Position numbers and translations under genes: made by a program
Notes under the pieces: model-generated
The model's input: the letters and a program-made list of their open reading frames with translations, nothing else
Databases searched by the model: none
What the model was told of the DNA's origin: nothing
DNA from: Acidobacteriota bacterium
GTDB taxonomy: Bacteria > Acidobacteriota > Vicinamibacteria > Vicinamibacterales > CAVVIG01
Direction: 5' to 3'
Length of the DNA: 64,000 bases
NCBI GenBank assembly: GCA_003222535.1
Contig: QHWJ01000236.1
Span: 22,939-86,938 of the forward strand
In this document: in pieces, positions 20,500 to 22,659 of the stretch
Position numbering within the stretch: position 1 is the first letter of the stretch
How the letters are laid out: every line of letters begins with the position of its first letter

Positions 20500-20700
20500 C
20501 TACCCAGCGCGCCGCTTTGCGAGAAGTTCGCGCACTTGCGGTACGAGATCGACGGGGATTTCCATGGCGGTATGAGTCGTCGATTCGTACGCCGCTTCGT
20601 CCTCCGCGACGGCTTCTTCCTCTGACTGCTGCTCGTAGTGTTCGAGCACACGGCGGACGCGTTCTTCGTCCCAACCCTGCGGAAAGTTCGGTTGCTTCAT
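20500..20700 (-). CDS. Small acidic protein, putative antitoxin
   Basis: MKQPNFPQGWDEERVRRVLEHYEQQSEEEAVAEDEAAYE; ATGA overlap with the upstream gene. Confidence 0.65.
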   Translation of the reverse strand: MKQPNFPQGWDEERVRRVLEHYEQQSEEEAVAEDEAAYESTTHTAMEIPVDLVPQVRELLAKRRAG

Positions 20701-20978
20701 TTCTTCCTCCGGCGTCGTCGCCGTAGTGCTTTAAGAGCCTTGGGACCCGGATCGTACGCGGTGATCACGAACGCCGAATCCGGTTGTGGATCGGGAACGT
20801 AAATGACCCGCAGATAGCGACCGGCTTCAGTCTGACCAACCGCAACGCGTGAGCCCTCGCTGCCAATTCGATCCTCAATGGGTTTCGCAAGGACCTCTTC
20901 GACCTCTTTCTCCTGGACGTCATGGTCGTAAATATGCGGCTCGCCCGTTCTCGGATCGTTGTAGTAGCGAAGCCGCAC
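20697..20978 (-). CDS. BrnT/DUF4258-like putative toxin
   Basis: RLRYYNDPRTGEPHIYDHDVQEKEVEEVLAKP...GQTEAGRYLRVIYVPDPQPDSAFVITAYDP. Confidence 0.65.
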   Translation of the reverse strand: MRLRYYNDPRTGEPHIYDHDVQEKEVEEVLAKPIEDRIGSEGSRVAVGQTEAGRYLRVIYVPDPQPDSAFVITAYDPGPKALKALRRRRRRKK

Positions 20979-21118: not shown

Positions 21119-21337
21119 ATGAGGATGGATAATCCGTATCCACACGTCGAGACAAGTAATTCTGTGCGGCACTTCCTGCGGTTCACACCCGAAGCGCAGA
21201 TCCACGAAATTCTTGACTACTTCACCCATACCGGCCTCACAGCGACGAAACAGGGTATTGACGCAGCCGTGCGGACGCATCCGAACGTATTCGGCGTTCG
21301 ACGTCGTGGCCGTGAAAAGTTCTTGTACTTGAAGTGA
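21119..21337 (+). CDS. Small hypothetical protein in low-GC island
   Basis: 72 aa, NPYPHVETSNSVRHFLRFTPEAQIHEILDYFTHTG; AGAGAGGTAATG upstream. Confidence 0.5.
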   Translation: MRMDNPYPHVETSNSVRHFLRFTPEAQIHEILDYFTHTGLTATKQGIDAAVRTHPNVFGVRRRGREKFLYLK

Positions 21338-21360
21338 GGGTAGCGATGAGGAAAGTCAAT

Positions 21361-21600
21361 GGCTACACCGTTCCGCCCGACCCGTTGGCGGATGTAGCCA
21401 GGAAACACGAAGACCGCGTGGTGAGCGCCTAGCAAGCAAGCCGCACGCGGCCCTTCGAGACGGGTCCAGTCTCTTACAAAAGCGCCCGGTCAGTCGTTGG
21501 TAGCGACCAGCCGGGCAAGCTAGAAACCACGCGGGTGTAGCCGCGCGATCACCAAGCTGATTATTGGCCACATCCGCCCACCGCGCAAGAGGCGGCCCTA
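21361..21600 (+). ncRNA. Candidate structured non-coding RNA (serial stem-loops, possible pseudoknot)
   Basis: By-eye stems: 21361-21367/21393-21399 plus 21373-21377/21387-21391; 21440-21443/21448-21451; 21457-21461/21469-21473; 21484-21489/21511-21516 extended by 21493-21496/21504-21507; 21530-21534/21541-21545; 21552-21555/21564-21567; 21574-21578/21591-21595. AGCT at 21518-21521 can pair with AGCT at 21555-21558. Confidence 0.5.
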
Positions 21601-21671
21601 TGACGTGTCCGAACTGTCAGCACAATCAGTGGAAACGCTCTGGCACAGTTACCAGGATCGGCGGCTGTTGA
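21600..21671 (+). other. Very small ORF with CxxC zinc-ribbon start (possible transposase N-terminal relic)
   Basis: MTCPNCQHNQWKRSGTVTRIGGC*. Confidence 0.3.
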
Positions 21672-21681
21672 TTGAGAATCT

Positions 21682-22659
21682 GTGATCGGAAAGGTTGCGT
21701 TTGAGCCTGTGACTGGCGTTGATGAAACCACCTTCGTGCTCGGTGCGGGTTTTTCCGCCGATCAAGGCTTTCCGTTAGCTCGAGACCTCCGCCCGCGTGT
21801 CCTTCACTTTCTGGAAGCGGAGCGACATCCTTCGTACGAAACGTTCCTTGTTTCTGATGATATCTTCCCGGGCGGCCAGTTCTACGAAGCACTGGGGGAT
21901 CTGGACCCAATCGGAAAACTGGGTTTCGAGGAACTCCTGATCCAGCTTCGGAAACGCGCTCAACAAGGCGATCAATCGTTAAACCCGCTCGATCAGACGC
22001 TCCGGATCGGCGTCGTGCGCCTGATCTGGTGTGTGACTCACGCGAATCGACACCCCGAGAAGATCTACCTCAACTGTGCCAAGCGATGGGCATCAGCGTC
22101 GAACTGCCATGTCGTGTCATTCAATTGGGATCTGCTCCCCGAGACATGTCTGACCCGAGTCGGTGGAGCGTGGAGTTATACGCTCGCCAAACAGGGCACC
22201 CCGATCCTCAAGCCGCATGGATCCGTCAACTGGACGTCGGTCAAGCAGCATCCCGAACTTACATCGGGGTACGGGGGCTGGGTCGGCGTAGATCCGGCTA
22301 GCACGGTTTCGTACGATGGGTCTGATCCCCTTGCCAACCCATTCGAGCAGGAGATCAATTCGGACCTGCGGTACTGCGTGTACCCCGGCGATCCTGATGC
22401 TGCCGATACACATCCAGACGTGGCTCTCCTCTGGCGGGACGTCCGCCAGGCGATCTCCGTAAGCGACAGGGTCGTTTTTATCGGGTATTCGCTTCCGGAC
22501 TACGACAACTACTCAGCCGACGTGCTGTCACATGCCTGCTCCGGAAAAGTCGTCGAAGTCTGGGACCCGTCGAAGCACACGCTTGATCGTTACGCAGCGA
22601 TCTTTGCGAACAGCGAGTTGCACGAAGCTACGTTCGGACAGACGCCGTACGCGTCATAA
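21682..22659 (+). CDS. SIR2-like domain protein, candidate defence/NADase protein
   Basis: GTG start; FVLGAGFSADQGFPLARDL, VVSFNWDLLPE, ILKPHGSVNW, VVFIGYSLPDYDNYSADVL. Confidence 0.82.
   Translation: MIGKVAFEPVTGVDETTFVLGAGFSADQGFPLARDLRPRVLHFLEAERHPSYETFLVSDDIFPGGQFYEALGDLDPIGKLGFEELLIQLRKRAQQGDQSLNPLDQTLRIGVVRLIWCVTHANRHPEKIYLNCAKRWASASNCHVVSFNWDLLPETCLTRVGGAWSYTLAKQGTPILKPHGSVNWTSVKQHPELTSGYGGWVGVDPASTVSYDGSDPLANPFEQEINSDLRYCVYPGDPDAADTHPDVALLWRDVRQAISVSDRVVFIGYSLPDYDNYSADVLSHACSGKVVEVWDPSKHTLDRYAAIFANSELHEATFGQTPYAS

What the first reader, a model, noticed from the sequence alone, without database searches (positions are those of the whole stretch)
21345..21600. Candidate structured non-coding RNA in a low-GC island, possibly an orphan HEARO/omega-RNA-like element
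Seen: the stretch before the SIR2 gene carries a string of compensating stems (coordinates in the feature list): ggctaca...ccgcc/ggcgg...tgtagcc, gccg/cggc, gagac/gtctc, gcccgg(tca)gtcg/cgac(cag)ccgggc, cgcgg/ccgcg with loop gtgtag, ccaa/ttgg, ccgcc/ggcgg. The AGCT between the large hairpin and the cgcgg stem can pair with the AGCT in the ccaa/ttgg loop, a pseudoknot-like arrangement. None of this belongs to the 7/9-bp repeat families elsewhere in the window. Inference: the single-stranded 'aagctagaaacca' between two hairpins and the loop 'gtgtag' remind me, from memory only, of HEARO/IscB-associated RNAs. No IscB-like ORF is visible, so it would be an orphan copy.
Basis: partly seen in the sequence, partly recalled or inferred. 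Interest (0 to 1): 0.72.

Follow-up and report, generated by a model that had tools for sequence, protein, structure and literature searches.

The report
Orphan antisense-type RNA of a transposase

Summary
The structure is real, but the RNA strand is the minus strand and the identity differs from the proposal. A relative (79% identical) lies directly upstream of an IS1-like transposase in one related genome. The window keeps the start of that gene (MTCPNCQHNQWKRSGT, 21600-21671), followed by a SIR2 gene. A covariance model found the same RNA in about 20 other Acidobacteriota loci, on the strand opposite a transposase and a few tens of bases upstream of its start. The transposase is usually a zinc-ribbon IS1-like one, but three loci carry an unrelated SWIM-finger (IS5-like) one. 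Both hairpins covary: 21 of 22 pairs show double changes, 95% of cells pair, 0 of 500 shuffles reach this. G-U pairs outnumber A-C 70:11, which fixes the strand. A sigma-70-like promoter and a terminator (second hairpin plus U tract) define an RNA of about 80 nt, window about 21553 to 21476 (-). Best explanation: an antisense RNA that controls transposase expression, like ISPpu9 Asr9, IS200 art200 or IS10 RNA-OUT, carried on a cassette shared between transposase families. In the window it is an orphan remnant. No Rfam family matches; HEARO, IscB and TnpB are not supported. Expression and function are untested.

The parts
21347..21630 (.). Whole element remnant: leader, antisense-type RNA gene and start of an IS1-like transposase gene
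   Evidence: 79% identity over 21347-21595 to G026:C83:60795-61042; the homology runs on into the transposase start
21476..21553 (-). Predicted small RNA, about 78 nt (start about 21553, inferred from the -10 box; end in the U tract)
   Evidence: Covariance model R2, built without this copy, hits 21551-21475 (-) with 30.4 bits, E about 1e-4
21583..21588 (-). Predicted -35 box TTGCGC (17-nt spacer)
   Evidence: TTG-type -35 with 17/18-nt spacing in most homologues
21560..21565 (-). Predicted -10 box AATAAT
   Evidence: Homologues carry GATAAT, CACAAT, TACAAT or CAAAAT at this place
21525..21550 (-). Hairpin 1: GAUCGCGCGG (CUACAC) CCGCGUGGUU
   Evidence: 9 model pairs, all 9 with compensatory changes in 23 sequences, 94% of cells paired
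21484..21516 (-). Hairpin 2, terminator: GCCCGGCUGGUCG (CUACCAA) CGACUGACCGGGC
   Evidence: 13 model pairs, 12 with compensatory changes, 96% of cells paired; 32/33 bases identical to L011, against 75% in the leader beyond it
21476..21483 (-). U-rich tract after hairpin 2 (GCUUUUGU)
   Evidence: T-rich tail follows hairpin 2 in nearly all homologues
21566..21595 (+). Decayed start-region inverted repeat (ccgcc/ggcgg) that in homologues lies over the transposase ribosome-binding site and the RNA promoter
   Evidence: 6-21 bp arms of very different sequence in the homologues, weak in the window
21600..21671 (+). Truncated start of the IS1-like zinc-ribbon transposase (MTCPNCQHNQWKRSGTVTRIGGC*)
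   Evidence: tblastn of the L011 transposase: 65% identity over residues 4-23, E 0.006; homologous DNA
21347..21475 (+). Distal leader with two further hairpins (ggctaca..tgtagcc and ccgcgtg..cacgcgg)
   Evidence: 75% identical to L011 over 21380-21475; function unknown
21682..22659 (+). SIR2-like gene that now follows the remnant; not part of the RNA element
   Evidence: PADLOC SIR2, E 9.3e-8; no Pfam match at E<=1

Best explanation
The feature is a remnant of a transposase gene's control region. It encodes, on the strand opposite the transposase, a small RNA of about 80 nt made of two hairpins, the second being its transcription terminator. In intact relatives the RNA promoter is embedded in an inverted repeat that lies over the transposase ribosome-binding site. 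The RNA is transcribed away from the transposase and ends near, or just downstream of, the transposase promoter where one is visible, so it is antisense to the transposase mRNA leader. Most likely it pairs with that leader and adjusts transposase translation or mRNA stability (inferred). The cassette (RNA, promoter, start-region hairpin) has been exchanged between IS1-like and SWIM-finger transposases. In the window the transposase body is gone and only the RNA cassette and about 16 recognisable codons remain in front of a SIR2 gene. Shown computationally: structure, strand, gene association, cassette sharing, truncation. Inferred: transcription, antisense pairing, direction of the effect.
For: DNA homologue directly upstream of an IS1-like transposase. 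Model R1, built from 4 loci, finds the other loci at the same place and strand. R2 over 396 Acidobacteriota genomes gives strong hits at transposases, including three at SWIM transposases never searched for; R2 over 19 further genomes gives more at IS1-like genes. Covariation: A13, 23 sequences, 95.1% of cells paired, 21/22 pairs with double changes, 0/500 shuffles; slid structures pair only 34-45%. Strand: G-U 70 against A-C 11 in strand-neutral stems; mean fold z -5.3 on the RNA strand against -2.7 on the other. Promoter-like boxes. Start-region hairpin with Shine-Dalgarno-like loop in 21 of 22 loci. Cassette 84% identical between a SWIM locus and an IS1 locus, ending at the start codon. Functional precedents: ISPpu9 Asr9 (PMC8450116) and IS200 art200 (PMC12594629).
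Against: No expression data. Transposase promoters just upstream are clear in only some loci; in L011 and the window none is visible, so the mRNA would have to start further upstream. The predicted RNA does not overlap the ribosome-binding site, and no extra pairing to that site was found (mean z -0.07). The start-region repeat shows little strand preference (G-U 11, A-C 7), so it could be a DNA operator. A 30-bit score alone is not decisive: an unrelated place in L093 scores 31; membership of the window copy rests on its DNA homology to L011.
Confidence: 0.72

Rival explanations
1. The RNA is a working partner of the transposase (guide or cofactor, as bridge RNA is for IS110), not a regulator.
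For: The same RNA occurs with two unrelated DDE transposase families; conserved structure; the RNA is retained where the transposase is truncated (window; L105).
Against: Close transposase relatives lack it and use an ordinary promoter (L021 with, L023 without; L011 with, L052 without). 46 loci with related transposases held no RNA near the transposase. SWIM transposase L135 has none. No variable guide-like segment was noticed.
Confidence: 0.08
2. The structure acts in DNA: a hairpin or inverted repeat recognised by the transposase as an element end or operator.
For: Inverted repeats next to transposases are classic ends or operators; the start-region repeat has no clear strand bias.
Against: The two covarying hairpins have a strong one-strand G-U bias, a U tract and a promoter. 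They occur on one side only, and no matching inverted repeat was found beyond the transposase.
Confidence: 0.1
3. Only a terminator for convergent transcription plus chance stems, without a separate RNA gene.
For: Hairpin 2 is a good terminator, and part of it scores on both strands.
Against: Hairpin 1 covaries at all 9 pairs, and a promoter-like sequence at fixed spacing precedes it.
Confidence: 0.07
4. HEARO/omega-RNA orphan.
For: General look of a multi-hairpin RNA next to mobile-element genes.
Against: No Rfam match; no TnpB zinc-ribbon domain in the genome; the partners are IS1-like and SWIM/IS5-like DDE transposases.
Confidence: 0.01

Closest known systems
Asr9 antisense sRNA of ISPpu9 (Pseudomonas putida; PMC8450116)
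   Same: Encoded immediately upstream of the transposase on the other strand; own promoter reaching into the first codons; predicted terminator; tnp mRNA leader with a structure that buries the ribosome-binding site.
   Different: Asr9 is about 180 nt, belongs to one IS and was shown to activate translation. Here the RNA is about 80 nt, two hairpins, shared by two transposase families, and untested.
art200 antisense RNA of IS200 (PMC12594629)
   Same: Divergent antisense transcript opposite tnpA; leader stem-loop sequesters the ribosome-binding site; element largely immobile.
   Different: IS200 has an unrelated Y1 transposase (from memory). A homology search against art200 itself was not made beyond Rfam.
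RNA-OUT of IS10 and the antisense RNA of IS30
   Same: Small antisense RNA acting on transposase translation (as cited in PMC8450116).
   Different: Different element families; from memory RNA-OUT covers the start codon, whereas this RNA stops short of it.
HEARO / omega-RNA (RF02033)
   Same: Structured RNA next to mobile-element genes.
   Different: No model match, different partner proteins, different size and strand.

Membership tests
HEARO / OMEGA RNA (RF02033) | Match to the Rfam covariance model | tested here: not met
   No hit at gathering level in the window or in 12 related loci; permissive scan of the region gave no HEARO
HEARO / OMEGA RNA (RF02033) | IscB or TnpB partner gene | tested here: not met
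   Partners are DDE transposases; no PF07282 in the own genome; IscB itself was not searched for separately
Transposase antisense sRNA (IS10, IS30, IS200, ISPpu9 type) | Encoded upstream of tnp on the opposite strand | tested here: met
   All intact loci
Transposase antisense sRNA (IS10, IS30, IS200, ISPpu9 type) | Own promoter and terminator | tested here: inconclusive
   Promoter-like boxes and a covarying terminator hairpin with T tract; no mapped ends; the strict promoter/terminator scan of the window and L011 found none
Transposase antisense sRNA (IS10, IS30, IS200, ISPpu9 type) | Overlaps the 5' UTR of the tnp mRNA | tested here: inconclusive
   Good tnp-strand promoter at or just beyond the RNA 3' end in a minority of loci, e.g. 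L087, L091, L103, L106
Transposase antisense sRNA (IS10, IS30, IS200, ISPpu9 type) | tnp leader hairpin at the ribosome-binding site | tested here: met
   21 of 22 loci have a 6-21 bp inverted repeat at the start, most rarer than in shuffles; not the window
Transposase antisense sRNA (IS10, IS30, IS200, ISPpu9 type) | Alters transposase expression or transposition | not testable with these tools
   Needs reporter and transposition assays
IS110 bridge RNA | DEDD (IS110) recombinase partner | tested here: not met
   Pfam/NCBIfam give IS1 and DDE_Tnp_1/IS5
IS110 bridge RNA | Loops complementary to donor and target DNA | not tested
   Insertion boundaries could not be defined (no terminal repeats)

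The most novel reading that the evidence does not exclude
A structured RNA that works in trans with DDE transposases of two unrelated families, as an obligatory cofactor or guide, or as a surviving 'immunity' RNA that silences incoming elements after the transposase is lost (window and L105).
Probability: 0.1. Interest if true: 0.85.

Novelty: new variant of a known kind. Interest (0 to 1): 0.5.

Why it matters
It defines an RNA family without an Rfam entry, with strong covariation and a consistent gene partner. It suggests that transposase-control cassettes (antisense RNA plus start-region hairpin) can be exchanged between unrelated transposases, which the known cases as described (IS10, IS30, IS200, ISPpu9) do not show. 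It also gives a testable case of such an RNA outliving its transposase.

Tried and rejected
HEARO and all Rfam families. DNA homologues in plasmids and phages: none; for L091 in plasmids: none. Weak blastn hits in the phylum are not near transposases. Coding explanation: frame-breaking indels. AGCT pseudoknot: not conserved. Terminal inverted repeats of an IS: none convincing. Extra pairing of the RNA to the ribosome-binding site: none. Shared winged-helix protein upstream of the window and G026 elements: no sequence support. Searches of viral contigs failed because the machine did not answer, so distribution outside Acidobacteriota is largely untested. R2 whole-genome scans miss the window copy itself, so genome counts are lower bounds.

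Full report
Observation. It lies in a lower-GC island. Rfam gives nothing. There is no tRNA in the window.

First homologue. Among 198 related genomes one other (G026, a Terriglobia MAG; same contig as L011) has a homologue, 79% identical over 248 nt. It lies directly upstream of a 319-residue IS1-like transposase with an N-terminal zinc ribbon. The DNA homology continues over the transposase start, and the window reads MTCPNCQHNQWKRSGTVTRIGGC* at 21600-21671: a truncated copy, 65% identical over residues 4-23. A SIR2-like gene (PADLOC E 9.3e-8) follows at 21682. The own genome has no full IS1-like transposase at E<=1e-20, no TnpB zinc-ribbon domain and no other convincing copy of the RNA. So the window copy is an orphan remnant.

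Family. Relatives of the transposase were collected from public genomes and from 396 Acidobacteriota genomes. Reading their upstream regions showed the same layout in L011, L013, L021, L081, L082 (two copies), L087, L088, L089, L090, L091 and L094. On the strand opposite the transposase there is a promoter-like sequence, a short hairpin (often with a GNRA-like loop), a linker, a GC-rich 13-bp hairpin and a T tract. A covariance model from four of these (R1; to ease alignment the seed sequences had single bulged or loop bases, and in one a few tail bases, removed) found the rest at E 4e-10 to 3e-4 in 386 kb, at the same place and strand. A second model (R2, from 11 unedited genomic sequences) detected L011 and the window copy, neither in its training set, with 32.8 and 30.4 bits.

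Covariation. On 11 sequences 19 of 22 pairs, and on 23 sequences 21 of 22 pairs, show compensatory double changes. 95% of cells pair and 0 of 500 shuffles reach the observed values; slid structures pair 34-45%. The alignment is fitted to the structure, and the 23 rows include one doubtful member (L093). Half of the rows were nevertheless not in the training set of R2, and the two hairpins are visible in single-sequence folds, with a mean z of -5.3.

Strand. In stems chosen without strand preference there are 70 G-U against 11 A-C cells; cells are not independent, but the ratio is large. The functional fold is therefore on the strand opposite the transposase, minus in the window. Between window and L011, the stem of hairpin 1 changes only by G-U/A-U and C-G/U-G exchanges that keep pairing. 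The terminator hairpin is 32/33 identical, while the leader beyond it is 75% identical. Indels of 1, 2, 4 and 6 nt exclude a conserved reading frame.

Gene association without protein bias. R2 alone over 396 genomes returned, besides known loci, new hits at three SWIM-zinc-finger DDE transposases (L101, L103, L106; Pfam DDE_Tnp_1 and SWIM; nearest NCBIfam IS5), at a contig-end IS1-like gene (L104) and at a locus with only the start of such a gene (L105). In 19 further genomes it found L130, L132, L133 and L134, all at IS1-like genes or fragments. Weaker hits without a transposase (G486, G402, G547; L093 at 31 bits) show where noise begins. The SWIM locus L101 and the IS1 locus L091 share 84% identity over 86 bp ending at the start codon and nothing beyond: the cassette is shared, not the protein. 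A transposase tree needs at least 4 gains or losses of the RNA, and 46 loci with related transposases have none beside the transposase.

Start-region hairpin. In 21 of 22 loci an inverted repeat of very different sequence covers the region between the RNA -10 box and the transposase start, with a Shine-Dalgarno-like purine stretch in or beside its loop. It is weak in the window. Strand preference is slight (11 G-U, 7 A-C), so it could act in mRNA, in DNA, or both.

Mechanism. The anatomy is that of an antisense-RNA-controlled transposase gene. ISPpu9 has an antisense RNA just upstream of tnp, with its promoter in the first codons, a predicted terminator and a leader that hides the ribosome-binding site; there the RNA raises translation (PMC8450116). 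IS200 has art200 and a sequestering stem-loop (PMC12594629). The sign of the effect here cannot be told. Where a good transposase promoter is seen (L087, L091, L103, L106) it lies at or just beyond the RNA 3' end, so the RNA would be antisense to the whole leader upstream of the ribosome-binding site; elsewhere the leader must start further upstream. No additional pairing to the ribosome-binding site was found.

Limits. There is no transcript evidence. E-values from the models are rough. Distribution outside Acidobacteriota was hardly tested because the viral-contig search machine did not answer. Whole-genome RNA scans miss weak copies such as the window's own. No terminal repeats were found, so it is unknown whether these transposases are active insertion sequences. 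The literature library lacks most subscription papers and the 2017 survey of 224 candidate RNAs, so a prior description there is not excluded.

Noticed in passing
L012, L014-L020, L024 upstream of the transposase: RNA-less IS1-like relatives in several phyla share a conserved transposase promoter/operator (TTGACA..GCGGTCAAGTATAAT) right before the start codon.
   Followed up: partly
L105:564-1500, L017, L092: Several of these transposases sit next to what look like HigA/HigB-type toxin-antitoxin genes (by eye, not tested).
   Followed up: no
L082 (G349:C193): Two diverged IS1-like transposases in tandem, each with its own RNA cassette, plus a third fragment.
   Followed up: no
window 20697-20978 (-) and about 21125-21337 (+): DUF4258 gene (E 3.2e-6) and a small 70-residue ORF of no known family that ends just before the element; the G026 element also follows an unrelated ORF without family.
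   Followed up: partly
L093:996-1071 (-): A 31-bit match to the RNA model about 2 kb upstream of a transposase; possibly chance, possibly another structured RNA.
   Followed up: no
L013:1517-1641: Hairpin 1 repeats the sequence of the start-region inverted repeat (TACCACGCATC), so this RNA might also pair with the start codon of its transposase; no general trend was found.
   Followed up: partly
plasmids collection: The SWIM-finger transposase has no relative at E<=1e-20 in 72,556 plasmid records, odd for a mobile element.
   Followed up: no
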